Assembly (NCBI RefSeq): GCF_009707385.1
Contig: NZ_CP046115.1
Span: forward strand, 4,464,001-4,528,000
From: Klebsiella oxytoca
GTDB taxonomy: Bacteria > Pseudomonadota > Gammaproteobacteria > Enterobacterales > Enterobacteriaceae
DNA length: 64,000 nt
Reading direction: 5' to 3'
Shown: piece after piece, positions 14,036 through 63,795 of the stretch
How positions within the stretch are numbered: the first letter of the stretch is position 1
How the letters are laid out: each line of letters starts with the position of its first letter
Program-made: the position numbers and the translations under genes
The notes under the pieces: generated by a model
Database searches by the model: none
What the model was told of the DNA's origin: nothing
Seen by the model: only the letters and a program-made list of their open reading frames with translations

Positions 14036-17000
14036 TTACCACTGATAACCCACGCCGATTGACGCACCGAAGTCGCCCTGACTGTTCGTGGTACCGGATA
14101 TCTTCGTTACCCACTTACCGTTGTCAGAGATGGTCGACACACCCAGTGCAACCGCCGACTGACCCTGATAGGTACCCCCGCCCAGACCTACCATGCTTGC
14201 CCCCGGGGCATACGGCTGCGGCAGGCTGGACATCGCCATCGCACCCGCAATACCGGCGCTCAGCTTGTCCTTCTGGTCGTTAACCATGTTTTTCAACTGG
14301 TTAAACTGCTTGTTGGTGTAGTTAACCGATTCAGAGACACCCTGTTTCAGCTGACCGACGTTCACCGCATCGGTGATTTCCGTACCCGCTGCCACGTTGG
14401 TTACCTGGCGTTCGCCACCGGAGTAGCCCATCGAGACGCTATTTTCACGGTTAGCCACGGAGTTCGCGCCCAGCGCCACCGAGTTTTTGGCCGTCGCCGA
14501 CGAACCGTTACCCAGCGCGACAGAGTTTGCTCCCGACGCCGATGCCTTCGTACCCACTGCCATGCTGTTGCTGCCGCTGGCTGACGATCCGGCACCACCC
14601 GCCAGTGAATCGCTACCGCTCACGGCAGGTTTGGCGTAGTTACTGGTGTTATTCACCTGGAACATACCGTCCTTACCGTTACTGATATTGCTCACGTTGT
14701 TGGTGATACTGCCGGTGGCATCTTTCAGCTGCGCCACGTTCACCGCATCGGTATCTTCCGTCCCCGCCGCCACGTTAGTCACCTGACGTTCATTACCGGC
14801 AGAGCCGACGGACACCGTGTTATCACGGTCAGCAACCGAGCCACTGCCCAGCGCCACCGAGTTGCTGGCGGTCACCGAGGCGTTATCGCCGATGGCCACG
14901 CTGCCGGTGCCCGATGCGCTGGCATTGTTACCGGTGGCGATAGCGCCGTTTCCGGAAGCCTGCGCGCCATTACCGGTCGCAATGCTGTTATCGCCGCTGG
15001 CCACCGTACCCTGACCCAGCGCAACAGCGTCTTTTCCGCTGGCGACCGCGTCCGGTCCGGTCGAGTTCACCTTCAGGTAACGCATGGTCGGCATAACCGT
15101 ATTGTTGTAAGACTCCTCAATATTGGTGACCCGGTAATCAAGGTTCTCGACCTTCTGGTTAGTGGCATACAGCTGGCTGCCGTTCACCGCATCGGTGCTC
15201 TTCGCACTCAGCTCGCCTGCCGCCACGTTGGTGATTTTGTTCACCGTGGTGGAGCCATGGCTTGCCGAGAACGCGCCCAGATTCTCATCCCACAGCAGGG
15301 CATCACCTTTCAGGCCATCAACGTTGACGACGATGTTCTCCAGCGCCGTGTTGGTGGCATACAGCTGCGAGCCGTTCACCGCATCGGTGCTGGTCGCCGA
15401 CAGACGACCCGCCGCGACGTTGGTGATGGTGCGCTCTGCCCCTTCACTGCCCACGCTCAGCGTGCTGGTCGGGTTCGCCCCGGCGAAAGCGTAGTCGGTG
15501 CCGCGCAGCGTCACCCCTGCCGTGCCCACTGCCGCTTCCGTCAGAGAACCTGCACCCAATGCGATATCACCGGCATTGTTCGCCACCGCACCCATCCCGA
15601 TCGCCACCGAATCCAGCCCCAGCGCCTGCGAGTCTGCACCCGTCGAGTTGGCGTGGAAGTACTTGATACCGGTGTTGTAGATGTTCTGCACCGAATCGCC
15701 CAGATTGCTGATGTTCTGCGTGTTCTTCGCGATATTAGTGGTGTTCGTCGCCACCTGCTGGTTGGTCGCAAACAGCTGCGAACCGTTCACCGCATCGGTA
15801 CTCTTCTCACTCAACTCGCCCGCCGCCACATTGGTGATCTTGTTCACCGCCGTATCGCCATGACTGGCCGAGAACGAACCGACATACTCGTCCCACAGCA
15901 GCGCATCCTTCTGCAGCCCGTCCACATCAATGTTCAGGTTCTCCACCGCCGTATTGGTGGCGTACAGCTGGGAACCGTTCACCGCATCGGTACTGGTCTC
16001 AGAGAGACGACCTGCCGCCACGTTGGTGATGGTGCGCTCGGCCCCTTCACTGCCCACGCTGACGGTACTGGTCGGGTTCGCCCCGGCGAAGGCGTAGTCG
16101 GTGCCGCGCAGCGTCACCCCTGCCGTCCCCACTGCCGCTTCCGTCAGAGAGCCTGCCCCGAGCGCGATATCACCGGCATTGTTCGCCACCGCACCCATAC
16201 CAATCGCCACCGAATCCAGCCCCAGTGCCTGCGAGTCTGCCCCCGTCGAGTTGGCATGGAAGTACTTCGTACCGCTGGTGTAGATGTTCTGCACCGAATC
16301 GCCCAGATTGCTGATGTTCTGCGTGTTCTTCGCGATATTAGTGGTGTTGGTCTCCACGTTCTGGTTAGTGGTAAACAGCTGCGAACCGTTCACCGCGTCC
16401 GTACTCTTCTCACCCAGCTCGCCCGCCGCGACGTTAGTGATGTTATTCACCACCGTATCGCCGTGACTCGCCGAGAAGGCCCCTTTATCCGCATCCCACT
16501 GCAGCGCATCCTGTTCCAGACCGCCGACGCTGGTATGCAGGTTCTCCACTGCCGAGTTAGTCGCATACAGCTGCGAACCGTTCACCGCATCGGTGCTGGT
16601 CTCAGACAGACGACCCGCCGCGACGTTGGTGATGGTGCGTTCAGCCCCTGCACTGCCCACGCTGACGGTGCTGGTCGGGTTCGCCCCGGCGAAGGCGTAG
16701 TCAGTACCACGCAGCGTCACCCCTGCTGTACCCACTGCCGCTTCCGTCAGAGAGCCTGCCCCGAGCGCGATATCACCGGCATTATTTGCCACCGCACCCA
16801 TACCAATTGCTACCGAATCCAGCCCCAGCGCCTGCGAGTCTGCCCCCGTCGAGTTGGCATGGAAGTACTTCGTGCCCTTCTCGTTAATGGTGGTGATCGT
16901 GTCGCCCAGATTGCTGATGTTCTGCGTGTTCTTCGCGATATTGGTGGTGTTGGTCTCCACGTTCTGATTGGTCGCAAACAGCTGCGAACCGTTCACCGCA

Positions 17001-20000
17001 TCCGTGCTCTTCTCACCCAGGTCGCCCGCCGCCACGTTGGTGATCTTGTTCACCGTCGTGTCGCCGTGGCTCGCCGAGAAGGCCCCTTTATCCGCATCCC
17101 ACAGCAGCGCATCTTTCTGCAACCCGCCGACGTTGTTGTTCAGGTTCTCCACCGCCGAGTTGGTCGCGTACAGCTGCGAACCGTTCACCGCGTCGGTGCT
17201 GGTCTCAGACAGACGACCCGCCGCCACGTTAGTGATGGTGCGTTCAGCCCCTGCACTGCCCACGCTGACGGTGCTGGTCGGGTTCGCCCCGGCGAAGGCG
17301 TAGTCAGTACCGCGCAGCGTCACCCCTGCTGTACCCACCGCCGCTTCCGTCAGAGAGCCTGCCCCGAGCGCGATATCACCGGCATTTTTTGCCACCGCAC
17401 CCATACCGATAGCGACCGCGTCCTGACCCAGCGCCTGCGAGTCTGCACCCGTTGAGTTGGCGTGGAAGTACCTGGTGCCTTTCTCATTAATGGTGGTCAC
17501 CGTATCGCCCAGGTTGGTGATGTTCTGCGTGTTCTGCGCGATATTAGTGGTGTTGGTCGCCACCTGATCGTTGGTTGCCTTCAGCTGCGAACCGTTCACT
17601 GCATCGGTACTGCCGTCTTCCAACGCCCCTTCAGCCACATTGGTGATCTTGTTCACCGTGGTATCGCCGTGGCTCGCCGAGAAAGCCCCTTTATCCGCAT
17701 CCCACAGCAGGGCATCTTTCTGCAGCCCGCCGACGTTGTTGTTCAGGTTCTCCACCGCCGAGTTGGTCGCGTACAGCTGCGAACCGTTCACCGCATCGGT
17801 GCTGGTCTCAGACAGACGACCCGCCGCCACGTTGGTGATGGTGCGTTCACTGCCCACATCCCCCACGCTCACGGTGCTGGCCGGATTGGCCCCGGCGAAG
17901 GCGTAGTCGGTGCCGTTAATGCTGGCACCCGCTGTACCCACTGCCGCTTTCGTTACCGAGTTCGCGCCCAGCGCCACATCGTTAGCGTTATTGGCAATCG
18001 CCCCCATACCGATAGCGACAGAGTCCTGGCCCAGCGCCTGCGAGTCCGCACCCGTCGAGTTGGCATGGAAGTACTTGGTGCCGGTGTTGTAGATGTTCTC
18101 CACCGAATCGCCCAGATCGCTGATGTTCTGCGTGTTCTTCGCGATATTGGTGGTGTTCGTCTCCACGTTCTGATTGGTCGCAAACAGCTGCGAACCGTTC
18201 ACCGCGTCCGTGCTCTTCTCACCCAGGTCACCCGCTTCCACATTGGTGATCTTGTTCACCGTCGTGTCGCCGTGGCTCGCCGAGAAGGCCCCTTTATCCG
18301 CATCCCACAGCAGCGCATCTTTCTGCAACCCGCCCACGCTGTTGTCCAGGTTTTCCAGTGCGGTATTGGTCGCAAACAGCTGCGAGCCGTTTACCGCATC
18401 GGTACTGGTCTCAGACAGACGACCCGCCGCCACGTTAGTGATGGTGCGTTCACTGCCCACATCCCCCACGCTCACGGTGCTGGTCGGGTTCGCCCCGGCG
18501 AAGGCGTAGTTGGTGCCGTTAATGCTCTCACCCGCCGTACCCACTGCCGCTTTCGTTACCGAGTTCGCCCCCAGCGCCACATCATTGGCGTTATTGGCAA
18601 TCGCACCCATACCGATAGCGACAGAGTCCAGACCTGTTGCCGTGGAATCTGCGCCTGTGGAATTGGCGTGGAAGTACTTGGTACCGGTGTTGTAGATGTT
18701 CTCCACCGAATCGCCCAGATCGCTGATGTTCTGCGTGTTCTTCGCGATATTGGTGGTGTTCGTCTCCACGTTCTGGTTGGTCGCAAACAGCTGCGAACCG
18801 TTCACCGCGTCCGTGCTCTTCTCACCCAGGTCACCCGCAGCCACGTTGGTGATCTTGTTCACCGTCGTGTCGCCGTGGCTCGCCGAGAAGGCCCCTTTAT
18901 CCGCATCCCACAGCAGGGCATCTTTCTGCAACCCGCCCACGCTGTTGTCCAGGTTCTCCAGTGCCGTATTGGTCGCAAACAGCTGCGAGCCGTTTACCGC
19001 ATCGGTACTGGTCTCAGACAGACGACCCGCCGCCACGTTGGTGATGGTGCGTTCACTGCCCACATCCCCCACGCTCACGGTGCTGGTCGGATTGGCCCCG
19101 GCGAAGGCGTAGTTGGTGCCGTTAATGCTCTCACCCGCCGTACCCACTGCCGCTTTCGTTACCGAGTTCGCCCCCAGCGCCACATCATTGGCGTTATTGG
19201 CAATCGCACCCATACCGATAGCGACAGAGTCCAGACCTGTTGCCGTGGAATCTGCGCCTGTGGAATTGGCGTGGAAGTACTTGGTACCGGTGTTGTAGAT
19301 GTTCTCCACCGAATCGCCCAGATCGCTGATGTTCTGCGTGTTCTTCGCGATATTGGTGGTGTTCGTCTCCACGTTCTGGTTGGTCGCAAACAGCTGCGAA
19401 CCGTTCACCGCGTCCGTGCTCTTCTCACCCAGGTCACCCGCAGCCACGTTGGTGATCTTGTTCACCGTCGTGTCGCCGTGGCTCGCCGAGAAGGCCCCTT
19501 TATCCGCATCCCACAGCAGGGCATCTTTCTGCAACCCGCCCACGCTGTTGTCCAGGTTTTCCAGTGCCGTATTGGTCGCAAACAGCTGCGAGCCGTTTAC
19601 CGCATCGGTACTGGTCTCAGACAGACGACCCGCTGCGACGTTGGTGATGGTGCGTTCCTTACCTTCACTGCCCACGCTGACGGTGCTGGTCGGGTTAGCC
19701 CCGGCGAAGGCGTAGTCGGTGCCGTTAATACTCTCACCCGCCGTACCCACTGCCGCTTTCGTTACCGAGTTCGCCCCCAGCGCCACATCGTTAGCGTTAT
19801 TGGCAATCGCACCCATACCGATAGCGACGGCATCATCACCCAGAGCCAGTGCTTCGGTCCCCTTAGAGTTGGCCTTGAAGTACTTGACTTTGTTATTTAA
19901 CTGACCGACGTTCACGGCATCTGTATCATCCACACCCTCGGCCACATTGACGATTTTGTTACCAGCGACATCCACCTTCTCTTTGGTGAACATCGGCCCG

Positions 20001-23000
20001 TTCTCGATGGTCAGCCCGTCGGTGTTCATCACCGTCTTGCCGGTGGTCACCGACTCAAACGCCGCGTTATCCGCCAGCTTGATGGTCAGGTCGCCCTTCT
20101 CATCCAGCTCCGTCAGCACATTGCCCGCCGAGTAGGTCTCGCCCTCACCCGTCGCCCCGCCGCCGAGGATACGCATCGTCTCACCCAGCTTACGTTTGGC
20201 GTTCTCACCCTGGTTGGCCGCAAAGGTCAGCGGAGAGTCCGTCAGCTCGCCGACGCTGTTGTTCAGGCCTTCCAGTGCGGTATTGGTCGCGTACAGCTGT
20301 GAACCGTTCACCGCCTCGGTGCTCTCTGCCGACAGCAGACCCGCCGCCACGTTAGAGATGGTGCGTTCACTGCCCACATCCCCCACGCTGACCGTACTGG
20401 TCGCGTTTTTGCCAGCAAACTCATAGGGCTTACCGTTGATTTTAACGTCGTTCTGCCCCTTCGCTTTCGCCGTCACCGAATCCGCGCCCAGCGCCACATC
20501 GTTAGCGTTGTGCGCGATAGCGCCCATACCGATGGCCACAGAGTCCAGACCCACCGCGTCAGCTTCATCCCCGGTAGAGTTGGCTTTGAAGTACTTGGTC
20601 CGGTTGTACAGCTGGGAGCCGTTCACCGCATCGGTACTGCCGTCTTTCACCTCGCCCTCGGCCACATTGACGATTTTATTACCGGCGACATCCACTTCAG
20701 TTTTGGTGAACTTCGGCCCGTCCGTGATGGTCAGCCCGTCGCCGGTCAGCACCGTGGTTTTGTTCTCACCCACGTTCACCGTGGTGAAGTCCGGGTTGTC
20801 CGCCATCAGCAGCTGCAGCTTATCGTCCACCACCGCCGTCTTCAGGTTGGCCCCGCTGTAGTCACCCTCTGTGCTTCCGGCACCCAGGATATCCACCGTC
20901 GAGCCCAGCGTTTTAGCCACCTTGCCGTCATTACTCTGGAAGGTCAGCTCACTGTTCGCCACCTTCTCCAGCTGGCTCAGGTTCACCGCATCAGTGCCCT
21001 GCTTACCGTCTGCCACGTTACTGAGCCTGGTGCCGCCGGTCTCTGTTTCCGGATCATAGGCCTCGCGGCCGAGAGTGATGCTGCCGTAGTTCACCGTGCC
21101 GTCTTCACGCACGTCATACCGCACCGCCTGGTTGCCCAGACGGTCCACCGCCGTGTTGGTCGCAAACAGCTGTGAGCCGTTCACCGCCTCGGTGCTCTCT
21201 GCCGACAGCAGACCCGCCGCCACGTTGGAGATGGTGCGCTCTGCCCCGTCTTTGCCCACGCTCACCGTGCTGGTGACGCCCTCACCGGCACCGGCAAACT
21301 CATACTCTTTACCGTCGAGCAGCAGTTTATCCTGCCCCTTCACGTCACCGGTCACCGAGTTCGCCCCCAGCGCCACATCACCCTCGTTACGGGCAATCGC
21401 GCCCATACCGATGGCCACAGAGTCCAGACCCGCAGCGTCGGAGTCATCTCCCTCAGAGTTGGCATTGAAGTATTTGGTGCCCGCCTTCAGCTGGCTCAGG
21501 TTCACCGCATCACTGTCCTGCTTGCCGTCCGCCACGTTCGCGATGGTGGTTCCGCCTGTCTGGTCTGCCGGGTTATAGGTGTCGCCATCAAGGGTGATAC
21601 GGTTGTAGTTGACGGTCTCCGTCCCGTCTTCCGCTTTATCCACGCTATACCGCACCGCCTGGTCGCCCAGACGGTCCACCGCCGTGTTGGTCGCAAACAG
21701 CTGCGAGCCGTTCACCGCCTCGGTGCTGTCATCTGCCAGCAGACCCGCCGCCACGTTAGAGATGGTGCGTTCGTTGTCTTTACTGCCCACGCTCACCGTG
21801 CTGGTGACGCCCTCTCCGGCACCGGCAAACTCATACTCTTTACCGTCGAGCAGCAGTTTATCCTGCCCCTTCACGTCACCGGTCACCGAGTTCGCCCCCA
21901 GCGCCACATCACCCTCGTTACGGGCAATCGCGCCCATACCGATGGCCACAGAGTCCAGACCCGCAGCGTCGGAGTCATCTCCCTCAGAGTTGGCATTGAA
22001 GTATTTGGTGCCCGCCTTCAGCTGGCTCAGGTTCACCGCATCACTGTCCTGCTTGCCGTCCGCCACGTTCGCGATGGTGGTTCCGCCTGTCTGGTCTGCC
22101 GGGTTATAGGTGTCGCCATCAAGGGTGATACGGTTGTAGTTGACGGTCTCCGTCCCGTCTTCCGCTTTATCCACGTCATACCGCACCGCCTGGTCACCCA
22201 GACGGTCCACCGCCGTGTTGGTCGCAAACAGCTGCGAGCCGTTCACCGCCTCGGTGCTGTCATCCGCCAGCAGACCCGCCGCCACGTTAGAGATGGTGCG
22301 TTCGTTGTCTTTACTGCCCACGCTCACCGTGCTGGTGACGCCCTCTCCGGCACCGGCAAACGTGTATTTTTCCCCGTCAAGCGTCAGGGTCTTCTGCCCC
22401 TTCACGTCACCGGTCTCTGAGCCAGCCCCCAGAGCAACTGAATTTTCATGGTTCGCTTTCGCGCCGGCGCCTAATGCAAGACTACTGGCTTCCGTCGCTT
22501 CAGCGGAATCGCCCAACGCTGTTGAAGACATAGCTACCGCGGAGCTGCTCATACCAATTGCCAGTGCACCTCCTTGTTTAGCAAACGCAAGTGTACCAAA
22601 GGCCAATGCACCATCAATATGGGCTTCAGCCCCTGTACCAATGGCAACGGTGTTCGCCCCGCTTACTTTTGAAAAAGCCCCTAAGGCCACGGTGTCGCTA
22701 CCAGCAGCATTGGAGTCGTGCCCGATTGCAACACCGCCCGATGAATTGTTAAAAGCCTCTGTACCTATCGCGATAGCATCCAGCCCGGCAACGGTTACCC
22801 CGCTACCTATAGCAACTGAGTATTCACCCGTATTGGTTGTCGCTTTTCTGGTACCAATTACTGCACCATTCTTGTCTAATGTTGATGTCAGCCGCTCTCC
22901 GGTTTTGTCGCTCAGGATTATAGCCTGCCCTAACGACGTTGAGCCCTCACCCGTCGCCTCTACATAAGAACCCAGCGCGATGCTTTCATGTCCGGAGGCT

Positions 23001-24961
23001 TTGGCAGCGACACCGCCGATAGCTACCGAGCTTGTCTCGATACTCTCGGCCTCCCGGCCAATGGCGATTGCAGAAGATCCTGAGGCCTTAGACTCCGTTC
23101 CAACGACGATACTGTTAGCCGATGTGGCAATAACACCAGCACCCAGCGCGATAGCGCCACCACCACTAGCAACGGTTTTAGTTCTTGAGATTTCTACACC
23201 AGCAGCGTTGTATACAGGAATGCTGGATCCTATAGCCAGTGACTGGGAGCCACCAGCCTCGACCTCACGACCAATGGCGACAGAATCAGTGTAAGCCTTA
23301 GCTTCGCTCCCTATCGCCGTCGCGTAGTCGTACCCGGCGCTTGAACTTTGCCCTAAGGCCATGGCGCTCATACCGGTGGCACTCGCCTTCTGCCCCAGTG
23401 CCGTGGATTTCAGACCGGTAGCTTCAGCCTCAGTACCAATTGCTGTGGCGTTCACAGCATTTACCTTAGATTCAAGCCCGATTGCGATACCGCCTATCGC
23501 CTCTTTGCTCGCAACGGCCAGCGTACCCATTGCGATACTATCCAGCGCCTGAGCCTTCACCCCGCTACCTACAGCAACAGAGTATTGACCAGAGGCAGCT
23601 GTTGCGGTCCTTATTCCACCGGTGCTTGTTGTATCTAGACGCTCTCCATCGGCGTTCCTTATTACCGCCTGACCTAACGCCGTTGAGCCATCTGCACTCG
23701 CTTCCACATAAGAACCCAACGCGATGCTTTCACGTCCAGAGGCTTTGGCAGAAACCCCACCAATTGCTACTGAGGTTGTCCCGGTACTGCTGGCCTGTTG
23801 GCCAATGGCAAGTGCTGAAGTCCCTGTAGCATCGGAAAGCGTTCCTATTACAACGCTGTTCGCCGAAGTAGCAGACACACCAGCCCCCAGAGCTATAGCA
23901 CCATTACCCGTTGCTGTTGTTTTTACCACTACCTCTTTTTCTTCACCTGCCTCATTTTTAACAATTTTTGTTGTGGTTGCACCTATAGCCACAGACTGAT
24001 AGCCAGTGGACTCAACACCTTGGCCTACAGCAACAGAACCCGTTTTTGTTGCGTTAGCATCCGCGCCAAGTGCCGTAGACTGGATGCCTGTAGCCATCGC
24101 ATAGTTTCCTAAAGCAACACTCTGCCCACCGCTAGGGTCCTTGACCTGGTTCAGAGGGTCACCGACATGACCAGCTCGGCTTTCCATACCAATCGCTATA
24201 CTAGAATCGTATAAAGTCTGAGCATTATTACCAATCGCTATCGAATGGTCCGTTGATGCAGTTGCATATGTGCCCACAGCTACTGACCTTGTTGCTGTTT
24301 TAGATTGCGCACCAATAGCAATACTGTTCGTACTTTCCTCGGGCTTGGGATTCCCCTCATCATCAGTAATGCTAGCTTTCTGAGCTGCATCTGTGTTTGC
24401 TTGCGCATTCAAACCAAAAGCTATGCTGCTATTACCGGAAGTAGAAGCATTAAGGCCAATAGCTGCAGAGTACGTACCAACCACTTTACTATCCATACCA
24501 ATAGTAATTGCACCCAGTCCTGCAGCTGCGGCGTTAGTCCCTATGGCTATACTATTGCTTGCAGCTATTCCCTTGCCGTCACTAATAGCCTTGGCACCAT
24601 TGCCCAAAGCGATAGAACCTGTAGCCTGAGCTACGGCCATATTGCCAATAGCCGTTGTTTCGGACGCCTGTGCCGAAGCGCCATTACCAATAGCGGTATT
24701 TGATGCCACATTCGCATCACTGGTTGGCGTGACCACCACCCCTTGAGTCGCGCCCCCAGTAAGAACAGACGATGCATTCACCATCCATGCTCCCGCCGTC
24801 CCCGGGATCCCCACCAGGGTGACGCTCAGCAATGCAACGGGCAGTGCCCGGCGCGCCCTTCTTAAACCGGACTTACCTTTACCTCTGGCTTTCGCCAGCT
24901 CGCTGACCGCCACCCATAAACCCAGGCTCGCGTTCCAGACTAAACGATATACTGTATTCAT
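14036..24961 (-). CDS. Giant trimeric autotransporter adhesin (YadA/SadA/UpaG-like)
   Basis: This 3,641-residue protein has the full trimeric autotransporter layout. The N terminus is an extended signal peptide (MNTVYRLVWNASLGLWVAVS, then a basic stretch and hydrophobic core, cleavage about residue 58). Residues about 85-850 are YadA head repeats (SVAIG / STALG type), including an internal duplication offset by about 744 bp. Two 531-bp stalk repeats follow, then transitional units, then seven 603-bp units, each starting KYFHANST and containing DAVNGSQL necks. Residues about 3290-3540 are a second head/neck region. The last 75 or so residues form the YadA membrane anchor, ending GASIGVGYQW. 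It should be a trimeric surface fibre mediating adhesion or autoaggregation. The reading frame is intact throughout. The start follows an AGGGGG-type site. Confidence 0.95.
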   Translation of the reverse strand: MNTVYRLVWNASLGLWVAVSELAKARGKGKSGLRRARRALPVALLSVTLVGIPGTAGAWMVNASSVLTGGATQGVVVTPTSDANVASNTAIGNGASAQASETTAIGNMAVAQATGSIALGNGAKAISDGKGIAASNSIAIGTNAAAAGLGAITIGMDSKVVGTYSAAIGLNASTSGNSSIAFGLNAQANTDAAQKASITDDEGNPKPEESTNSIAIGAQSKTATRSVAVGTYATASTDHSIAIGNNAQTLYDSSIAIGMESRAGHVGDPLNQVKDPSGGQSVALGNYAMATGIQSTALGADANATKTGSVAVGQGVESTGYQSVAIGATTTKIVKNEAGEEKEVVVKTTATGNGAIALGAGVSATSANSVVIGTLSDATGTSALAIGQQASSTGTTSVAIGGVSAKASGRESIALGSYVEASADGSTALGQAVIRNADGERLDTTSTGGIRTATAASGQYSVAVGSGVKAQALDSIAMGTLAVASKEAIGGIAIGLESKVNAVNATAIGTEAEATGLKSTALGQKASATGMSAMALGQSSSAGYDYATAIGSEAKAYTDSVAIGREVEAGGSQSLAIGSSIPVYNAAGVEISRTKTVASGGGAIALGAGVIATSANSIVVGTESKASGSSAIAIGREAESIETSSVAIGGVAAKASGHESIALGSYVEATGEGSTSLGQAIILSDKTGERLTSTLDKNGAVIGTRKATTNTGEYSVAIGSGVTVAGLDAIAIGTEAFNNSSGGVAIGHDSNAAGSDTVALGAFSKVSGANTVAIGTGAEAHIDGALAFGTLAFAKQGGALAIGMSSSAVAMSSTALGDSAEATEASSLALGAGAKANHENSVALGAGSETGDVKGQKTLTLDGEKYTFAGAGEGVTSTVSVGSKDNERTISNVAAGLLADDSTEAVNGSQLFATNTAVDRLGDQAVRYDVDKAEDGTETVNYNRITLDGDTYNPADQTGGTTIANVADGKQDSDAVNLSQLKAGTKYFNANSEGDDSDAAGLDSVAIGMGAIARNEGDVALGANSVTGDVKGQDKLLLDGKEYEFAGAGEGVTSTVSVGSKDNERTISNVAAGLLADDSTEAVNGSQLFATNTAVDRLGDQAVRYSVDKAEDGTETVNYNRITLDGDTYNPADQTGGTTIANVADGKQDSDAVNLSQLKAGTKYFNANSEGDDSDAAGLDSVAIGMGAIARNEGDVALGANSVTGDVKGQDKLLLDGKEYEFAGAGEGVTSTVSVGKDGAERTISNVAAGLLSAESTEAVNGSQLFATNTAVDRLGNQAVRYDVREDGTVNYGSITLGREAYDPETETGGTRLSNVADGKQGTDAVNLSQLEKVANSELTFQSNDGKVAKTLGSTVDILGAGSTEGDYSGANLKTAVVDDKLQLLMADNPDFTTVNVGENKTTVLTGDGLTITDGPKFTKTEVDVAGNKIVNVAEGEVKDGSTDAVNGSQLYNRTKYFKANSTGDEADAVGLDSVAIGMGAIAHNANDVALGADSVTAKAKGQNDVKINGKPYEFAGKNATSTVSVGDVGSERTISNVAAGLLSAESTEAVNGSQLYATNTALEGLNNSVGELTDSPLTFAANQGENAKRKLGETMRILGGGATGEGETYSAGNVLTELDEKGDLTIKLADNAAFESVTTGKTVMNTDGLTIENGPMFTKEKVDVAGNKIVNVAEGVDDTDAVNVGQLNNKVKYFKANSKGTEALALGDDAVAIGMGAIANNANDVALGANSVTKAAVGTAGESINGTDYAFAGANPTSTVSVGSEGKERTITNVAAGRLSETSTDAVNGSQLFATNTALENLDNSVGGLQKDALLWDADKGAFSASHGDTTVNKITNVAAGDLGEKSTDAVNGSQLFATNQNVETNTTNIAKNTQNISDLGDSVENIYNTGTKYFHANSTGADSTATGLDSVAIGMGAIANNANDVALGANSVTKAAVGTAGESINGTNYAFAGANPTSTVSVGDVGSERTITNVAAGRLSETSTDAVNGSQLFATNTALENLDNSVGGLQKDALLWDADKGAFSASHGDTTVNKITNVAAGDLGEKSTDAVNGSQLFATNQNVETNTTNIAKNTQNISDLGDSVENIYNTGTKYFHANSTGADSTATGLDSVAIGMGAIANNANDVALGANSVTKAAVGTAGESINGTNYAFAGANPTSTVSVGDVGSERTITNVAAGRLSETSTDAVNGSQLFATNTALENLDNSVGGLQKDALLWDADKGAFSASHGDTTVNKITNVEAGDLGEKSTDAVNGSQLFATNQNVETNTTNIAKNTQNISDLGDSVENIYNTGTKYFHANSTGADSQALGQDSVAIGMGAIANNANDVALGANSVTKAAVGTAGASINGTDYAFAGANPASTVSVGDVGSERTITNVAAGRLSETSTDAVNGSQLYATNSAVENLNNNVGGLQKDALLWDADKGAFSASHGDTTVNKITNVAEGALEDGSTDAVNGSQLKATNDQVATNTTNIAQNTQNITNLGDTVTTINEKGTRYFHANSTGADSQALGQDAVAIGMGAVAKNAGDIALGAGSLTEAAVGTAGVTLRGTDYAFAGANPTSTVSVGSAGAERTITNVAAGRLSETSTDAVNGSQLYATNSAVENLNNNVGGLQKDALLWDADKGAFSASHGDTTVNKITNVAAGDLGEKSTDAVNGSQLFATNQNVETNTTNIAKNTQNISNLGDTITTINEKGTKYFHANSTGADSQALGLDSVAIGMGAVANNAGDIALGAGSLTEAAVGTAGVTLRGTDYAFAGANPTSTVSVGSAGAERTITNVAAGRLSETSTDAVNGSQLYATNSAVENLHTSVGGLEQDALQWDADKGAFSASHGDTVVNNITNVAAGELGEKSTDAVNGSQLFTTNQNVETNTTNIAKNTQNISNLGDSVQNIYTSGTKYFHANSTGADSQALGLDSVAIGMGAVANNAGDIALGAGSLTEAAVGTAGVTLRGTDYAFAGANPTSTVSVGSEGAERTITNVAAGRLSETSTDAVNGSQLYATNTAVENLNIDVDGLQKDALLWDEYVGSFSASHGDTAVNKITNVAAGELSEKSTDAVNGSQLFATNQQVATNTTNIAKNTQNISNLGDSVQNIYNTGIKYFHANSTGADSQALGLDSVAIGMGAVANNAGDIALGAGSLTEAAVGTAGVTLRGTDYAFAGANPTSTLSVGSEGAERTITNVAAGRLSATSTDAVNGSQLYATNTALENIVVNVDGLKGDALLWDENLGAFSASHGSTTVNKITNVAAGELSAKSTDAVNGSQLYATNQKVENLDYRVTNIEESYNNTVMPTMRYLKVNSTGPDAVASGKDAVALGQGTVASGDNSIATGNGAQASGNGAIATGNNASASGTGSVAIGDNASVTASNSVALGSGSVADRDNTVSVGSAGNERQVTNVAAGTEDTDAVNVAQLKDATGSITNNVSNISNGKDGMFQVNNTSNYAKPAVSGSDSLAGGAGSSASGSNSMAVGTKASASGANSVALGNGSSATAKNSVALGANSVANRENSVSMGYSGGERQVTNVAAGTEITDAVNVGQLKQGVSESVNYTNKQFNQLKNMVNDQKDKLSAGIAGAMAMSSLPQPYAPGASMVGLGGGTYQGQSAVALGVSTISDNGKWVTKISGTTNSQGDFGASIGVGYQW
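15060..19880. repeat. 603-bp tandem repeats in the adhesin stalk
   Basis: The segment coding for KYFHANS recurs at about 15650, 16253, 16856, 17459, 18062, 18665 and 19268, exactly 603 bp apart. A diverged KYFKANS unit lies at the 19.9-kb end. Adjacent copies between about 18.5 and 19.7 kb are nearly identical over a full period. The period is a multiple of three (201 residues), so gain or loss of units keeps the frame. Confidence 0.9.
21290..22370. repeat. Two 531-bp tandem repeats in the adhesin
   Basis: Two nearly identical 177-codon units lie 531 bp apart. Both carry VTSTVSVGSKDNERTISNVA, NYNRITLDGDTYNPADQTGG and KYFNANSEGDDSDAAGLDS. They are a different repeat class from the 603-bp units and lie towards the N terminus of the protein. 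Differences are limited to scattered bases such as the YDVDKAEDG/YSVDKAEDG pair. Confidence 0.85.
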
Positions 24962-27132: not shown

Positions 27133-28506
27133 TCATGACGGCAAAAAATTGACCGCCACTTCAAAACCGCCGGTTGGGCGATTCTGCCAGCTCACCTCAA
27201 ATTCATGCAGACGCGCAATCCGTTTGACGATGGATAACCCCAGACCGCTGCCGTTCTCGCTGGCGCCGGGCGGGCGGAAAAAGCGCTCGCCCAGGCGTTC
27301 CAGATGGCTGGGCATCACGCCTGGCCCGTTATCGACGACCCGCAGGCGATGATGCTGAAGAACTATCGCCACCTCGCCACCGGCCTGGGTATAGCGCAGG
27401 GCGTTATTCACCAGGTTACTGAGCAGCATCTTCAACAGCAGCGGATTGCCCTGGATCACCGCCGGAGGCACGCTGGTTTCAAGAGTCAACGCCACCTTTT
27501 TTTGCTCCGCCAGCGGAGTTAGCTCCCCTATCACCTCACTCGCCAGCCGACACCAGTCAATATGACTTAAATCGGCCATCAGCACGGTGTGACCGTCAAG
27601 ACGGGAAAGGGCGAGCAGCTGGTCCACCAGCCGGGTGGTCCGGTCAATACCTATAATAAGGTTATTAAGCGCATGACGAGGGGTTTTGCCATTCTCTTCC
27701 GCCAGCAATGCCACTTCACTCTGAATACGCAGCGCGGTAAGCGGGCTCCGCAGTTCATGGGCGGCATCGGCGGTAAACTGGCGCTCACGCTCGAACATGC
27801 CGCTGACGCGGACAAACAGCTCGTTAAGCGCAATGACCAGCGGACGGGCTTCCCTGGGAACACGTTTTACTTCCAGCGCCCGGCTGTCATCCGGGCTGCG
27901 GCGCGCCAGCTGCTGTGCGGTATGTTTCAGCGAGTAGAGTTCGCGGCGTACTATCCAGGCGGTTAATCCCAGCATCAACGGCAGGCCAATAACCCACGGC
28001 CAAAGCTGGCGGAAGACAATTTCGCTGACCACATCGGAACGGTACTCTTTTTCCTGCCCGACCGCGATGGTATAGGCTTTATCCGGCGTTGAGATATAGA
28101 GAATGCGCCACATCTCGTCGTCATCGCCCTCGAGAGGTTTATCGATAAACCCCATTAAACCGGTGTAGCCAAACTCATGGCCGTGATCGTTGTCGCTTAA
28201 CAGCAGCGCGCCGTGGCGGTCAAAAATCGCAAAACCCAGCGCATCGTCATCCTGCAGGCCGGTGTCTCCCATTCCCACCAGATTGCGCGTTTTAGGTAGA
28301 GAGACAGAGGTGCTGTCATCGACCGCCAGCTCGCTCAGATTGGCGGTGGCCAGACGTTTGGCGAACAGCATCTGCTGGGTATCAAAAACTTCGTCGATAA
28401 CCTGCCGGGTCTGCCACCAGGCCAGGCTGCTGGCCGCCCCCCAGACCAGCAGGGCAATAGCTGAAATATAGATAAGCAGTCGGGTGCGTAAACTGAGATC
28501 ATTCAT
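27133..28506 (-). CDS. QseC-like sensor histidine kinase
   Basis: A 457-residue kinase from the ATG at 28506, which overlaps the end of the response regulator by 8 bp. Membrane helices lie at about residues 10-30 and 168-187, enclosing a periplasmic sensor region with VDEVFDTQ-like and [11 protein letters not shown] segments as in QseC. The HAMP-like linker is followed by the H box [17 protein letters not shown] (His about 250), the N box [10 protein letters not shown], and the G boxes DNGPGV and GSGLGLSIV. All catalytic motifs are present. It resembles E. coli QseC clearly, but whether it is the orthologue or a paralogue cannot be decided here, so no symbol is assigned. The signal sensed is unknown. 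Confidence 0.9.
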
Positions 28507-29164
28507 CTTCGGCTCCCAGATAGTAGCCAAGACCACGCTCGGTTCGAATAAAATCATTACCCAGCTTGCGCCGCAAATGATGAATATGCACCTCAATGGC
28601 GTTACTGCCGAGTTCGTTATTCCAGCTGTAAAGTTTCTCTTCAAGTATCGCCCGGGACATAATGCGCTGCTTATTTAGCAACAGCTGTTCCAGCAGCGCC
28701 TGCTCGCGGACGGTCAGGGTAATGGGTTGGCCGCTGCGGGTCACGCTGCGCGTATCGGTATCGAACACCACATCACGATGTCTGAGCTGCGTAGAGTAGT
28801 GGGCATGGCTACGGCGAATCAGCGCATTAAGGCGGGCGACCAGTTCACCAAGCGCGAAGGGTTTACCCATATAATCATCCGCGCCGCCGTTTAACCCCTC
28901 AATTCTTTGGTGCAGCGCGTCTCGCGCCGTGAGGATCAATACCGGAACCCGGCACTGCTGCTGACGCCACCAGCTCAGAACATCCATACCGTCAATGCCG
29001 GGCAGGCCGAGGTCGAGAATAACGGCGTCAAAAGGCGCCATCAGCAGCGCCTGTCTTCCCGGCTCGCTGTGGGTAAACCAGTCAACGCAAAAGCCGCACT
29101 GTTCAAGCCCATTCTTAATGCCGTCGCCTATCAGGCTATCGTCTTCCAGTAACAGTATTCTCAT
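28499..29164 (-). CDS. QseB-like OmpR-family response regulator
   Basis: A 221-residue two-domain regulator. The receiver has the acidic pair E7-D8-D9, phospho-acceptor Asp51 (VILDLGLPG) and Lys101 (DDYMGKPF). The C-terminal winged helix (about residues 125-219) includes [15 protein letters not shown] and [11 protein letters not shown]. It pairs with the overlapping kinase gene downstream. The QseB family controls motility and surface structures in enterobacteria. Here its nearest neighbour upstream is an autotransporter gene, but a regulatory link is only an inference. Confidence 0.92.
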
Positions 29165-29396: not shown

Positions 29397-32222
29397 TTAG
29401 AATTGATAATTAAGACGGAACAGCAATCCTTTATCGCTCTGACTCTCTTCCTGCCAGTGCCAGGCGTTCAAGCCAAGTGAAGTATTGCCCGTTACCCAGC
29501 GGGCGCCAACCTGGGCGTTGCTGGTGATTTTTTCCCGCCGGGCGCTCGCGTTTTTAAAACGCACGCCGGGGGCGCTGTTCAGGCGGGCATATCCCGTTTG
29601 CTCCTGATAATAAATAGTCGGTCCGGCTTCTACGCTGGCATTAAGATGCAGACCATTTTCATCCTGCCAGCCCAGGCGCACGCCAGCCAGAATATCGACC
29701 GCCGTTTTATCGCGGCCATCAAGATTCAGGTTCCACTCGCCGGCCCGCTGCTCCTGCACCGCGTCAGCGTGATGCCAGCGCATTTTCGCTCCGGCATAAG
29801 GCTCCAGCGTCAGTTCCTTACTCAGTTCGAGATTTTTGCCCAGCGTTGAGGTGAAGCTGAGCTCCTGCTGTTCACTATGAGCGGTCGCCTGACGGTTAAC
29901 ACCTTGATAACGAATATGCCGCGAAGTATCCAGCTGATGGATGCTGGCATCGAGCTGGTTTTTCCACAGCCATTCGCCCAGGGAATATTGATGCCCCAGC
30001 CCAAAGAACTGGCTATAGCCATTATCAACGCCATCAGCACCTTTATTCGTTCCCCCTTCAATACGCGCCAGGCCGTAGCGTAGCGTGAACTGCTGCCCGT
30101 CGAGACTGAAGTCCTGGGTCAGGGCCACCATATCGTAGCGGCCATTCTCCCCCAGTTCGGCCTGCGGGTTATGTTTGTCAATGATATTGAAGCCCAGCCC
30201 CGCGGTCGTTTTCAGGGTGTTGTCCGCCATCCGTTCAAAACGGTTGGTCAGGGTTCTGGCCTGGCGCAGCGCCAGCCCAATATCGCGGCCTGAGATCTGA
30301 GAAATGGCCTGACTCAGCCCCTGAACGGAAGATTGGTTAAGGCTACCGTACAGCGCGCTGGCGTGGTAACCCTCCTCCAGCGCCTTTGCCGCCGCCTGCA
30401 GGTCGGCGTTACTGACCAGCTCGTCATAGCGATTTTTGCTCATCACCACATCGACATTTCCCTGGCTATCCTTTATTCCCTTCGCCTGCCAGACAACGCT
30501 GGTTGACTGAATATTGCCGGAGCCGTTGAGATTATTGCCGACAAAAACATCATCAAGCCTGACCGACGTCGCGCTGGTTTGCTGCGTAAAGGCGGTATCG
30601 ACCTGTACATCCGCGAGATTAAGGTTTTGCCCATAGAGCGCCCCGGCCTGGGCTATGTTCTGCGTCCCAATGGTGTAATTGCCGACCGTATACTGCCGGG
30701 TGGCATCACTACCGTTAACGTAAATTTTTCCGCTGTTCACGATGCGGTCATTGCTGGTTGTCGTCGTAAACGGCGCGGCGCCGCTGGCGTTAATGTGAAT
30801 AACCCCCTGACTGTCGTTGATGAGCGTACTGTTACCCGTACCGCGCAGCGCGGTTAAGCTGCCGCTGGCCGCGCCGTTGTCGGCGGTAAGCGTGATGGTT
30901 CCACGGTTGATAGCACTCGCCCCGCGAGCGGCGGTAAGCGCGCTGCCGCTATTATTCACCGTGATCTGCCCGGTGTTAACGACCGTTGCGCCCGCCCCCT
31001 CCGCATACATGCCGGTTCCCCCAGCGGAAACGTTCATCGTGCCGCTGTTAATAGCGCTTAAGCCGCCGGTACTATATTCATTCTCAATACGGATACCGGT
31101 CGCCCCGGAACCGCTAACCGTCATACCGCCTCTCTGCAGTACACTGCCTCCGGTACTGGCTTCAGCATCAATACCCGTCGCATTCGCGCCGACCGCAAAA
31201 TTCTGGCTATCCTGAATAACCTGGAAATTATTACCATCGATATCGAAGGCGCTGGCGATAACGTCATCGTCGCGCCAGGTACCGCTCAGCGAAGAGACGT
31301 TAATCCGGGCGCTTTCGGCAATGGTGAGTTTGCTCTGCTGGCCATCCAGCTTGATACCCGTACTGTCCCAGCCGGAAACGGTGAGCGAACCTTTTACCGA
31401 CACCGTCGCATTCGCTCCTTCAATATCGATAGCGTCAGCACCGCTTTGGACATTCACTTTGCTGCTGGCGGCTAAGTCGAGCGTACTGCCCGCACCGTTG
31501 AGCTCAATAATACTGGCATCGCTACTGGCAGACAGATTACCGGCAATGTTAATCTGCGCCTGGCTACCGGTGATGCTTAAAGCGGTGGCATCATTTTGCG
31601 CGGTCGTGGTAACCCCTGCTGGCTGATTCAGCGTTATTCCCTGGCCCGTAATTCGGGCGGTGTATTGATTGTTTCCGCTGGCCAGGCTGTTTGCATCAAC
31701 CGCCAGAGTGCCGTTGCTTTGATTAAAAGTGAAAGGCGTGACGTTGCTTGCCGCACTATTTAAATGTGCGCTAAATCTATCCTGAGTGGAATTACCCGTA
31801 TTGCTTCCGCTATTGCCGGTGTTGCCGGTATTACCTGGATTGTCGGTGTTACCTGTTCCGCCCGTATTATTCAAATTATTCCAGCGGTCGATAACGTCCT
31901 GCGGCGTATTGGTCGGCCAGTTACCGTAGCGATGATAATATTCGATGTAATCATCATAATCGTCGAAATCATCATCGTCGTCATCGCCATCGCCACCGCC
32001 GCCCGCAGCAACGGCAATACCCAACGCCGCAAGCGTGGCGCCACCGCCAACCCACCACCATAGTGAACTTGATTCGTCATCAGCACGGCAGTTTTCAGGC
32101 AAACTGGCGCGCTGTTCGGCGGAGAGTTTATCGATATTTGATGGGCAGCTGGCCGCCTGGCTACTGATTGACGTTGCCCCCAAAGATAATGAGATCATGC
32201 AGGAGAGAAGTTTCTTATTCAT
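29397..32222 (-). CDS. Autotransporter outer-membrane protein (MisL/AIDA-type position and layout)
   Basis: A 941-residue type Va autotransporter. The signal peptide ends near residue 23. An unusual segment follows: CRADDESSSLWWW, a hydrophobic GGGATLAALGIAVAAGGGG stretch (about 58-76), then a run of Asp residues with YDDYIEYYHRYGNWP. A Gly/Asn/Thr linker (about 118-147) leads into a beta-helix passenger rich in N, S and G (about 150-640). The C-terminal beta-barrel (about 665-941) ends LLFRLNYQF, with the terminal Phe needed for BAM insertion. It is followed upstream by FidL-like and MarT-like genes, as misL is in Salmonella SPI-3 (MisL is 955 residues). Function as an adhesin is inferred. 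Confidence 0.9.
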   Translation of the reverse strand: MNKKLLSCMISLSLGATSISSQAASCPSNIDKLSAEQRASLPENCRADDESSSLWWWVGGGATLAALGIAVAAGGGGDGDDDDDDFDDYDDYIEYYHRYGNWPTNTPQDVIDRWNNLNNTGGTGNTDNPGNTGNTGNSGSNTGNSTQDRFSAHLNSAASNVTPFTFNQSNGTLAVDANSLASGNNQYTARITGQGITLNQPAGVTTTAQNDATALSITGSQAQINIAGNLSASSDASIIELNGAGSTLDLAASSKVNVQSGADAIDIEGANATVSVKGSLTVSGWDSTGIKLDGQQSKLTIAESARINVSSLSGTWRDDDVIASAFDIDGNNFQVIQDSQNFAVGANATGIDAEASTGGSVLQRGGMTVSGSGATGIRIENEYSTGGLSAINSGTMNVSAGGTGMYAEGAGATVVNTGQITVNNSGSALTAARGASAINRGTITLTADNGAASGSLTALRGTGNSTLINDSQGVIHINASGAAPFTTTTSNDRIVNSGKIYVNGSDATRQYTVGNYTIGTQNIAQAGALYGQNLNLADVQVDTAFTQQTSATSVRLDDVFVGNNLNGSGNIQSTSVVWQAKGIKDSQGNVDVVMSKNRYDELVSNADLQAAAKALEEGYHASALYGSLNQSSVQGLSQAISQISGRDIGLALRQARTLTNRFERMADNTLKTTAGLGFNIIDKHNPQAELGENGRYDMVALTQDFSLDGQQFTLRYGLARIEGGTNKGADGVDNGYSQFFGLGHQYSLGEWLWKNQLDASIHQLDTSRHIRYQGVNRQATAHSEQQELSFTSTLGKNLELSKELTLEPYAGAKMRWHHADAVQEQRAGEWNLNLDGRDKTAVDILAGVRLGWQDENGLHLNASVEAGPTIYYQEQTGYARLNSAPGVRFKNASARREKITSNAQVGARWVTGNTSLGLNAWHWQEESQSDKGLLFRLNYQF

Positions 32223-58228: not shown

Positions 58229-59520
58229 TTAGTAGTAGTTTATCGTAAACTCCACAGCAGAATCCGCCCTGCCCGCCGTCATTGTGGTACTTCCGGCAGT
58301 TCTGACGTAGCGGGCTCTCAGAGGTATAGAGTAGTTAGCGACGCTGTTCAATAAATTCAGGCCGCTGTCTACCGCCAGACCAGAGACAGCTTTTTCCATT
58401 ACATTGATACTCGATTTATCCTGAATTTCCAGGCACACGCCGCTCGCCGCATCAGTCGTGGGTGCGATATTAGCGCAATGCTCTCCGCTCGGCATTTCAC
58501 TAAACCCATAAACTGGATTAAATAGTACACTAACGGTATTTGGAGTCAGGGCTCCCAAAACAATATCATCATCGCCATTCCAGCTAAAAGACGGCCATTG
58601 ATTGGCTATCGCTTTGTAGAAACCAAACATCGGCGGGCAATTATTCAACTCAATGGCAAAATCCACCCACGGTGTATTTTCCATATTATCTGACACATTA
58701 TGCTTCCCCATGGCCACATTGACATCGGGTGTCTGGCAGGTACCTGAGACTACATTAATGGAGCCGGACTCTATAATTAAACGAGGACCATAGTCTCGGG
58801 TCACTTCAGGCCCTGACGCATTCTCAAGAAAATCCATATGCAGAGTTACTGGCGGAACAGAGATGGGAACAGACCACGTCCCCGAGGGAATATCCCCCGT
58901 TTTAAGCAGATAAATATCCACGGTAAGATACTGTCCCATATAAGACGCTATACCACCCCAGCCGGAGCTCGTTCCATCCCCCCCCCCCAGTTCTGGATAA
59001 AGGGATAAGCCTTTAAGTTTGCAGAGGCAATCACAAGACCTAATCCAGGAATGCCTGTATCATAAATATTTCTGTTCCTCCACGTACCTACAATAGCCGG
59101 CAGACTACCTTCTATATTATGGTACAAGGTAAGCGTTATCGGGTTTTGATCACCATCGGTACGAATACAGTCTGTAACGCCGAGAAAATCCCCATTATCC
59201 GGATTCTTAATACTTTGGCTCCAGAGCACCGTACCAACCGGACTGTTTCTTAATGCTGAAACCTGAATACCGTCAAGAAGGAGTGGTATATGATAATCCA
59301 CATAAGTGGTGCGCCCTGACATGTTCGAGGCACAATCTATTGCGGCAAGCGCCCTGCCCGGCAGCAGCGACAACAACAGCAACGACGCGAGAGAAAACAT
59401 GATCCCGTGTTTTACGCTGAAATCATCCCGCCGCTCGCCCGTCATCCCTGCCCGCTGCTTTCCTGATAACGCCCGCGACACGCCGGCGATATAAGAACAA
59501 TATTTCGTGAGTTTTTTCAT
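58229..59520 (-). pseudogene. Two-domain fimbrial tip adhesin, switched off by an 11-G tract
   Basis: Two consecutive frames make one adhesin. The first (59520-58948) has a signal peptide (MFSLASLLLLSLLPGRALA) and a lectin-type receptor domain, and ends just after the G tract at IQNWGGG. The second (58939-58229) is the pilin domain, ending SAVEFTINYY. In the second frame, the codons immediately past the tract read DGTSSGWGGIASYMGQYLTV. With 9 or 12 G residues the two join into about 430 residues with no stop. With the 11 seen here, translation stops. It is the last gene of the operon, so loss leaves pilus assembly intact but tip-less. A true phase-variable switch and a sequencing error are the two explanations. 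Confidence 0.75.
58978..58988. repeat. Homopolymer tract of 11 C/G in the adhesin gene
   Basis: Eleven consecutive C on the plus strand (G on the coding strand) sit at the junction between the receptor and pilin domains of the fimbrial adhesin. Such tracts slip during replication and are known phase-variation elements in other surface genes. Confidence 0.95.
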
Positions 59521-62219: not shown

Positions 62220-62924
62220 TTATTTCCCTGCAATATCAACCGGTCGCAGGGCGCCGTAGTCGTTAATGATGACCGGGTAAAATGTGGTGACGGATTTATT
62301 CAGGGTAAAGGTCCGGGTGCCGCCCGGGGCCATCATGCCGCCCTCGGAGATCGGTTTATCGCCCTTATCATCTTCCGTGAGATAAGCGACGGTAATGTGG
62401 AACGGCGTCGGATTACGGGCGGTGACCTGGTTACCGGAACGGGTCCAGACCACTTTTGATGGCGCCTCAGTGGCCGCGTTCCTGGACAGCCCGGCAGGGC
62501 GGAAAAAGATCTTCAGCCGCGAACGAAACGCCATCTGCAGCCGGTTCTGTTTATCGGGATTCGCCACTTTAGGCGGGACTTCCAGCACGTTCAGATAGAA
62601 AACGGACTCTTTGTCCTGCGGCAGGGCCTCGCCGGTATAGCGCAGGCGCAGGGTCTGGCCGCGACCAGCGTTGACGCGGTTAATCGGCGGGGTCAGGACA
62701 AACGGTGCCTTCGCGGTTTCCGGGGTGGACTTCGGGTCGCCGGAGTCCACCCAGGCCTGGATGAGTACCGGACCCGAACCGTTGTTGTTCATTTTGACCG
62801 ACACCTCTTTCTCGGCTGCCGGGTAGATAACCCGCGTACCGGTAATGACGATTGCGCTGTGTGCCGGCAGTGCGAGGCCGGCCAGCAGGAGAAGAAGCAG
62901 TCGGGAAAAAAGTGGGAGTGTCAT
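62220..62924 (-). CDS. Periplasmic fimbrial chaperone
   Basis: A 234-residue PapD-like chaperone with a signal peptide (cleavage about 23, after AHS). It has the N-terminal domain motif IVITGTRVIYPAAEKEVSVK with the conserved Arg, PPINRVNAGRGQTLRLRY with its conserved basic residue, and VFYLNVLEVPPK (G1 donor strand region). The second domain has ARNPTPFHITVAYL. It binds pilins by donor-strand complementation and delivers them to the usher. It lies between the pilin and usher genes, and its stop is 40 bp before the usher start. Confidence 0.94.
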   Translation of the reverse strand: MTLPLFSRLLLLLLAGLALPAHSAIVITGTRVIYPAAEKEVSVKMNNNGSGPVLIQAWVDSGDPKSTPETAKAPFVLTPPINRVNAGRGQTLRLRYTGEALPQDKESVFYLNVLEVPPKVANPDKQNRLQMAFRSRLKIFFRPAGLSRNAATEAPSKVVWTRSGNQVTARNPTPFHITVAYLTEDDKGDKPISEGGMMAPGGTRTFTLNKSVTTFYPVIINDYGALRPVDIAGK

Positions 62925-62990: not shown

Positions 62991-63545
62991 TTACTGGTAG
63001 TCGATGCTGAAGTTGACGGCGCTTTCGACCAGACCCGGCGTGGTGGCACCGGTCGCGTAGTACTCCACGGAGTACGGCAGCACGGTTGACCCGCTGGAGA
63101 TATCGAAACGGGTGGTGTTGACGGTCTGATCAGAGTTACCCACCTTGATTTTGCTGCCAGTTTGCTGATCGAGCAGCTGCAGCTGGACGTTGGTTGCCGC
63201 AGTCGCCGCCGCAGCAGTGTTGATCAGGTTATAGCTGTTAAAATCAACGGTAGAGCCGTTCTCAAAGAAGGCTGCCGCGGTGTTGGTCGCCGTCACGCCC
63301 TGGCAGTTCTCCAGACCGATGGTAAAGCCGGTGGTACCGGTCGTCTGACCCGCTGCCGCCAGGGTGGCAACGCTGACGGTCGGCAGGGTCACCAGCGCCG
63401 GAGAAGGCTGGCCGTCAACGGTGATGTCACAGGTGGTTGCAACCAGCTCGCCTTCAAAATTGATGGTGCCGTCTGCCGCCATAGCAGAAGAAGCGAAGCA
63501 CGCGGAGGCGATAACAGCAGAAAGAGCAAGTGTGTTGAATTTCAT
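62991..63545 (-). CDS. Major fimbrial subunit (FimA-like pilin)
   Basis: A 184-residue pilin. The signal peptide MKFNTLALSAVIASACFASS is cleaved after AMA at about residue 23. The mature protein has GTINFEGELVATTCDITVDG with the first Cys, a second Cys in IGLENCQGV (the pilin disulfide), and the penultimate-Tyr type ending ESAVNFSIDYQ, the beta strand recognised by the chaperone. It is first in the operon. I chose the ATG at 63545, behind GGAG, over an in-frame start at 63584 that would disturb the signal peptide. No minor pilin genes follow, only the usher, chaperone and adhesin. Confidence 0.93.
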   Translation of the reverse strand: MKFNTLALSAVIASACFASSAMAADGTINFEGELVATTCDITVDGQPSPALVTLPTVSVATLAAAGQTTGTTGFTIGLENCQGVTATNTAAAFFENGSTVDFNSYNLINTAAAATAATNVQLQLLDQQTGSKIKVGNSDQTVNTTRFDISSGSTVLPYSVEYYATGATTPGLVESAVNFSIDYQ

Positions 63546-63795
63546 TTTAAAACTCCATTTATTAATAAAACGCTTATCCTTCATCCTTTAATGAAAGATA
63601 AGTTCCATCACCGTGAAATTAATGTCTTCCGGCTAAACGTTCATCCGTGAGGAATAAAAGTTTACCGCTGTCAGACAAGATTAATTTCATCCGGTAAACC
63701 AAATGCATAAAAACGCGTTAAAATACTGACCGGTGTCTTACCGGAGATATCCTGTTCCATAAAAAAGATATAAACACCAGGTACGGTGAAAACGC

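What the first reader, a model, noticed from the sequence alone, without database searches (positions are those of the whole stretch)
58948..59010. Poly-G tract at the domain junction of the fimbrial tip adhesin: candidate phase-variation switch
Seen: 11 G residues on the coding strand exactly where the receptor domain meets the pilin domain. The frame stops 13 codons later, while the alternative frame continues through the whole pilin domain. Only 9 or 12 G restore a continuous adhesin of about 430 residues. Known: long G tracts slip and switch surface genes on and off in several pathogens. Inference: the pilus can be made with or without its tip adhesin. A homopolymer sequencing error is the main alternative.
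Basis: partly seen in the sequence, partly recalled or inferred. Interest (0 to 1): 0.82.

Follow-up and report, generated by a model that had tools for sequence, protein, structure and literature searches.

The report
G-tract in a Klebsiella fimbrial adhesin
A bacterial gene for the sticky tip of a hair-like fibre is cut in two at a run of eleven identical bases, the kind of sequence that slips during copying and can turn a surface gene on and off, but switching itself has not been shown.

Summary
The tract is real: 11 C on the + strand at 58978-58988 (11 G on the coding strand). It splits the tip-adhesin gene of a four-gene chaperone-usher operon in a Klebsiella-group genome. One correction: the tract is not at the domain junction. 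It lies in a disordered, hypervariable loop of the MrkD/CupB6-like receptor domain, about 78 residues before the pilin domain.

An uninterrupted 430-aa relative (94% identical to the downstream piece) exists in Klebsiella grimontii, and the same genome has an uninterrupted paralogue in a second, 89% identical operon. Both halves of the split gene show equal constraint and no other break. The genome has one other 11-G tract, inside an open capsule-type glycosyltransferase gene.

Best explanation (about 0.5): slipped-strand ON/OFF switching, recorded in the OFF state. Fixed inactivation and a homopolymer miscount remain live. No reads and no second isolate could be examined, so length variation is not shown. 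The mechanism is a known kind (Neisseria pilC1 poly-G); I found no paper describing it for an enterobacterial chaperone-usher tip adhesin, in ten limited searches.

The parts
58978..58988 (-). 11-G homopolymer tract (11 C on + strand) inside the receptor-domain coding region
   Evidence: longest G/C run of the window
58948..59520 (-). upstream piece of the tip-adhesin gene: long leader plus most of the receptor domain, 190 aa, ends shortly after the tract
   Evidence: 91% identical to P0001, 78% to own paralogue over aa 1-175
58229..58977 (-). downstream piece: rest of the receptor domain plus the whole pilin domain, in another frame (open from 59059)
   Evidence: PF00419 E 6.6e-5, below the curated cut-off; 94% identical to P0001
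59651..62239 (-). outer-membrane usher
   Evidence: PF00577 E 7e-165, PapC_N, PapC_C
62220..62924 (-). periplasmic chaperone
   Evidence: PapD_N, PapD_C
62991..63584 (-). major pilin (FimA-like)
   Evidence: PF16970, PF00419
63796..64000 (-). end of a 184-aa frame next to the operon, a possible regulator (runs past the window; L054:11797-12351); the paralogous operon has a similar 198-aa frame at the same place
   Evidence: no Pfam match at E 1, so 'regulator' is a guess from position

Best explanation
Slipped-strand (contingency-type) switch of a chaperone-usher tip adhesin. The G tract gains or loses bases during replication. When the frame is closed, as in this assembly, translation stops just after the tract, and the product lacks the last strands of the receptor domain and the whole pilin domain, so it cannot be placed at the pilus tip. 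When the frame is open the complete adhesin of about 430 residues is made. The tract sits in a disordered, hypervariable, glycine-rich loop of the receptor domain, where extra or missing glycines should be tolerated. Shown: tract, frames, domains, uninterrupted relatives, constraint. Inferred: slippage rate, reversibility, effect on the pilus.
For: Tract and frames. Markov expectation 0.04 in the window; one of only two 11-runs in the genome, whose tail falls 20, 3, 2, 2 for runs of at least 8, 9, 10, 11. Uninterrupted K. grimontii relative of 430 aa, 94% identical to the downstream piece, cluster of 43 members. Uninterrupted paralogue of 429 aa in the same genome. No other stop or frame break in either piece; dN/dS against the paralogue is 0.24 before the tract, 0.24 just after it and 0.22 in the pilin part, so the downstream half was kept under constraint. 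Tract in the least conserved stretch, at a low-confidence loop (P0001 181-189, pLDDT below 50). The second 11-G tract of the genome lies in a capsule-type glycosyltransferase gene whose three relatives read as DNA lack it. Of 39 adhesin places listed in the family search (at most four candidates scored per genome), only this one is split, and none of the 42 other fetched rows has a G run above 6.
Against: No length variation was observed: one genome, no reads. The relatives read as DNA lack the tract, the own paralogue included, so it is not a conserved switch; P0001's codons at this place are unknown. Scaled to the genome, the Markov model expects about 3 such runs, so their number is no excess (my scaling). 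G tracts of 10 or more occur in 18 of 20 genomes of the genus, and 12 of 36 inspected touch no open frame of 90 aa or more, so a long tract by itself is weak evidence. Slipped-strand switching by long G tracts is, to my knowledge, unusual in Enterobacterales. The dN/dS values describe the long divergence from the paralogue and cannot date the inactivation.
Confidence: 0.5

Rival explanations
1. Recent fixed inactivation: the gene was broken once by slippage at the G run in this strain and is now an early pseudogene; the uninterrupted paralogous operon makes it dispensable.
For: An uninterrupted paralogue with a near-identical assembly machinery is in the same genome (89.4% DNA identity over 5.85 kb). 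Fimbrial genes lost by frameshift are reported as frequent in host-restricted Salmonella (PMC3373541, passages seen). The homologues read as DNA lack the tract.
Against: No second lesion, and the lesion is in the one sequence of the gene prone to reverse itself.
Confidence: 0.24
2. Homopolymer miscount in the assembly: the gene is really uninterrupted in the sequenced strain and the recorded tract length is wrong. A long G tract would still be there.
For: Long G runs are a classic error site of several sequencing methods (recalled); the closest relative is uninterrupted.
Against: The assembly looks good: one contig, 100% complete; a mechanical frame list of the window, judged by eye, shows no other evident split gene and includes an unbroken 3641-codon frame. 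The other 11-G tract lies in an open frame. None of this tests this tract.
Confidence: 0.21
3. Programmed slippage of RNA polymerase or ribosome on the G run makes a fraction of full-length adhesin from the closed gene, without any DNA change.
For: A homopolymer of this length is a possible slippery site; both frames are conserved.
Against: Bacterial transcriptional slippage is best known on A/T runs (recalled); no other signal was looked for.
Confidence: 0.05

Closest known systems
Neisseria pilC1 poly-G switch (type IV pilus tip adhesin)
   Same: A G homopolymer of about ten bases inside the gene of a pilus-tip adhesin; slippage truncates the protein. PMC5231331 (passages seen) reports pilC1 tract-length changes between paired isolates, on to off. 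A paralogue, PilC2, exists (named as PilC1/C2 in PMC3960869, passages seen).
   Different: Different pilus type and unrelated protein; there the length change was seen, here it was not.
MrkD / CupB6 / LpfD / FimH two-domain tip adhesins of chaperone-usher pili
   Same: Receptor domain plus pilin domain, last gene of a pilin-chaperone-usher-adhesin operon; fold matches to CupB6 5cyl, LpfD 5afo, FimH and MrkD1P 3u4k.
   Different: No G tract is known to me in these genes; type 1 fimbriae of Klebsiella switch by promoter inversion (recalled). Sequence identity in the fold matches is 8-24%.
E. coli Group 3 capsule kpsC reversible frameshift at an A homopolymer
   Same: Enterobacterial surface gene, reversible frameshift at a homopolymer (PMC13410964, passages seen).
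   Different: Short A tract, described there as rare, capsule gene.
Bordetella fim promoter poly-C switch
   Same: Homopolymer slippage controlling fimbriae (recalled).
   Different: Acts on transcription of the major subunit, not on the adhesin frame (recalled).

Membership tests
Chaperone-usher two-domain tip adhesin | Gene in a cluster with usher, PapD-type chaperone and pilin | tested here: met
Chaperone-usher two-domain tip adhesin | N-terminal receptor domain of the FimH/MrkD fold | tested here: met
   On the uninterrupted relative P0001 and its alignment: profile match to MrkD1P 3u4k E 1.3e-7; Foldseek 3u4k E 1.1e-5, TM 0.62 by target, rmsd 5.7, and CupB6 5cyl E 5e-10. The whole-length two-domain alignments have large rmsd (11-18), domain orientation included. 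The MrkDrd Pfam model stays below its cut-off in the four of five homologues where it is seen
Chaperone-usher two-domain tip adhesin | C-terminal pilin domain | tested here: met
Chaperone-usher two-domain tip adhesin | One continuous reading frame | tested here: not met
   Window gene split in two frames; the paralogue and the K. grimontii relative are uninterrupted
Slipped-strand phase-variable (simple sequence repeat) gene | Homopolymer or short repeat long enough to slip, inside the gene or promoter | tested here: met
   11 G inside the gene
Slipped-strand phase-variable (simple sequence repeat) gene | Length change moves the gene between open and closed frames, with both halves otherwise intact | tested here: inconclusive
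   Both halves intact and under equal constraint; a changed length was not observed
Slipped-strand phase-variable (simple sequence repeat) gene | Tract-length variation within a culture or among isolates | not testable with these tools
   No reads and no second isolate of the species reached
Slipped-strand phase-variable (simple sequence repeat) gene | Tract kept in relatives | tested here: inconclusive
   Absent in the 42 other homologue rows with DNA, all at most 78% identical; the close K. grimontii relative was seen as protein only, with a glycine-rich stretch at this place

The most novel reading that the evidence does not exclude
This Klebsiella lineage carries a small slipped-strand 'phasome' of two 11-G tracts, one in a fimbrial tip adhesin and one in a capsule-type glycosyltransferase, giving four surface states (adhesin on/off times polysaccharide on/off). 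An uninterrupted paralogous adhesin served by a near-identical usher would be the alternative tip, and in-frame length changes would alter the glycine loop of the receptor domain. Translational poly-G switching of a chaperone-usher tip adhesin would be new for Enterobacterales, as far as my searches reach.
Probability: 0.27. Interest if true: 0.68.

Novelty: new member of a known kind. Interest (0 to 1): 0.42.

Why it matters
Enterobacterial fimbriae are known to switch mainly by promoter inversion or DNA methylation (recalled). A base-slippage switch inside the adhesin gene itself would be a second, independent layer acting on binding rather than on pilus transcription. Such genes are liable to be annotated as pseudogenes, so genome surveys of adhesins may undercount them.

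Tried and rejected
Domain-junction placement: rejected by the fold model and the Pfam/VIA boundaries.

An invertible promoter switch for this operon was looked at only as short inverted repeats upstream. Nothing convincing was found; recombinase genes were not searched for.

Relatives in E. coli genomes: none by megablast or distant blastn. Plasmids: none by megablast; four records with distant homologues of 28-32% identity by protein search with the paralogue. The upstream piece alone found no homologue of 104-332 aa; truncated forms may be hidden inside 90% clusters, so this says little.

The genus is Klebsiella in the broad sense, inferred from the names of close hits.

Literature: ten searches listed no paper that I recognised as a poly-G switch in a chaperone-usher tip adhesin of Enterobacterales. 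Only open-licence papers are held, eight of the ten searches required all their terms together, and of the listed papers I opened five, as passages only. PMC10400614 gave nothing on the point.

Correction made in checking: the notebook entry says 19 G/C runs of 8 or more; recounting one search gives 20.

Full report
What is there. The minus strand between 63584 and 58229 holds a four-gene chaperone-usher operon: FimA-like pilin, PapD-type chaperone, usher, and a tip adhesin as last gene. The adhesin is in two frames. The upstream piece (59520-58948, 190 aa) has no Pfam or NCBIfam match; the downstream piece is open from 59059 to 58229 and carries the pilin domain. The change of frame falls in a run of 11 C (+ strand) at 58978-58988.

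Is the tract unusual? In the window a first-order Markov model expects 0.04 G/C runs of 11 or more, while the counts of runs of at least 4, 5, 6, 7 and 8 are all below expectation. Scaled by me to the whole genome the model gives about 3, and 2 are seen, so the number of such runs is no excess. A dinucleotide shuffle expects 2.83 eight-G matches in the window; 4 are seen, all from this one tract, and 32 of 100 shuffles reach 4. The genome (5,394,761 bases, one contig) has 20 G/C runs of 8 or more, 3 of 9 or more and 2 of 10 or more, both of 11: the two long ones stand out from the genome's own tail. In the genus, 37 G tracts of 10 or more occur in 18 of 20 genomes. Of the 36 looked at (all but the window's own), 12 touch no open frame of 90 aa or more, and many of the others lie in frames that look spurious to me. 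So a long G tract is not rare here; one in the middle of an otherwise sound gene is, in my reading, less common.

Is the gene otherwise sound? Yes. K. grimontii has an uninterrupted 430-aa relative (P0001, cluster of 43 members, 94% identical to the downstream piece and 91% to the upstream piece). The same genome holds a paralogous operon, 89.4% identical over 5.85 kb of DNA, whose 429-aa adhesin is uninterrupted and has no G run above 4. Against the paralogue, dN/dS is 0.33 in the leader (60 codons), 0.24 in the receptor part before the tract, 0.24 after it and 0.22 in the pilin part. The downstream half has therefore been under the same constraint as the upstream half; these values do not date the break. 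In the family search (392 genomes drawn from a larger group, 25 with a match at E 1e-20, at most four candidates scored per genome) the 40 listed rows are 39 gene places, and only the window's is split. The 42 other homologue rows with DNA (a few genes fetched twice) have no G run above 6.

The second tract. The other 11-G run of the genome (C1:3555405-3555415) is inside a 374-aa glycosyltransferase frame (PF00534) of a locus with Wza- and Wzc-like genes (those two names are read by me from the sequences, not from a family search). Its frame is open. Three relatives read as DNA (46%, 46% and 38% identical, the last with stops) have other codons and no G tract at that place; three closer ones seen as protein only (56-71%) have other residues there and no glycine run. 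A run of 8 lies in the Wzc-like gene. That both longest G/C tracts of the genome are inside surface-structure genes supports the contingency-gene reading; two tracts are a small sample.

How it most likely works. I commit to a slipped-strand ON/OFF switch caught in the OFF state (about 0.5). Fixed loss (0.24) and a homopolymer miscount (0.21) are not excluded. The miscount would change only the state recorded, not the presence of a long tract. The effect on the pilus is open: no tip, the paralogue's tip on a pilus built by a near-identical usher, or no pilus.

Compared with what is known. Neisseria pilC1 is the closest mechanism: a poly-G inside a pilus-tip adhesin gene whose length changes truncate the protein (PMC5231331, passages). 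Reversible frameshift at a homopolymer is shown for the E. coli kpsC capsule gene (PMC13410964, passages). I found no paper on a poly-G switch in an enterobacterial chaperone-usher tip adhesin in ten searches of an open-licence library (listed in Tried and rejected), which is weak evidence of absence.

Noticed in passing
G000:C1:3555405-3555415 (L055, outside the window): Second 11-G tract of the genome, inside an open glycosyltransferase gene of a capsule-type locus; the three relatives read as DNA lack the tract. A second candidate slipped-strand switch.
   Followed up: partly
L053:5878-12059 (G000:C1 about 403900-410060): Paralogous chaperone-usher operon, 89% identical over 5.85 kb. The adhesin leaders are about 96% identical in DNA (60 codons) while the receptor parts differ by about 26-30%, a mosaic that suggests recombination or diversification.
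   Followed up: partly
L054:13378-17940 (just beyond the window end): A second, different chaperone-usher cluster with what looks like a FimH-like 315-aa adhesin and an usher lies next to the window's operon (named by eye).
   Followed up: no
window 14036-24961: 3641-aa trimeric autotransporter adhesin (27 YadA stalk stretches, YadA head and anchor, ESPR leader).
   Followed up: no
window 29397-32222: 941-aa autotransporter with a BigA beta-sandwich domain, next to a sensor kinase gene (27133-28644) and a likely response regulator (the regulator named by eye).
   Followed up: no
window 59345-59520: The adhesin has an unusually long leader of about 59 residues, strongly conserved between paralogues, although a shorter signal peptide could start at an internal Met.
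   Followed up: no
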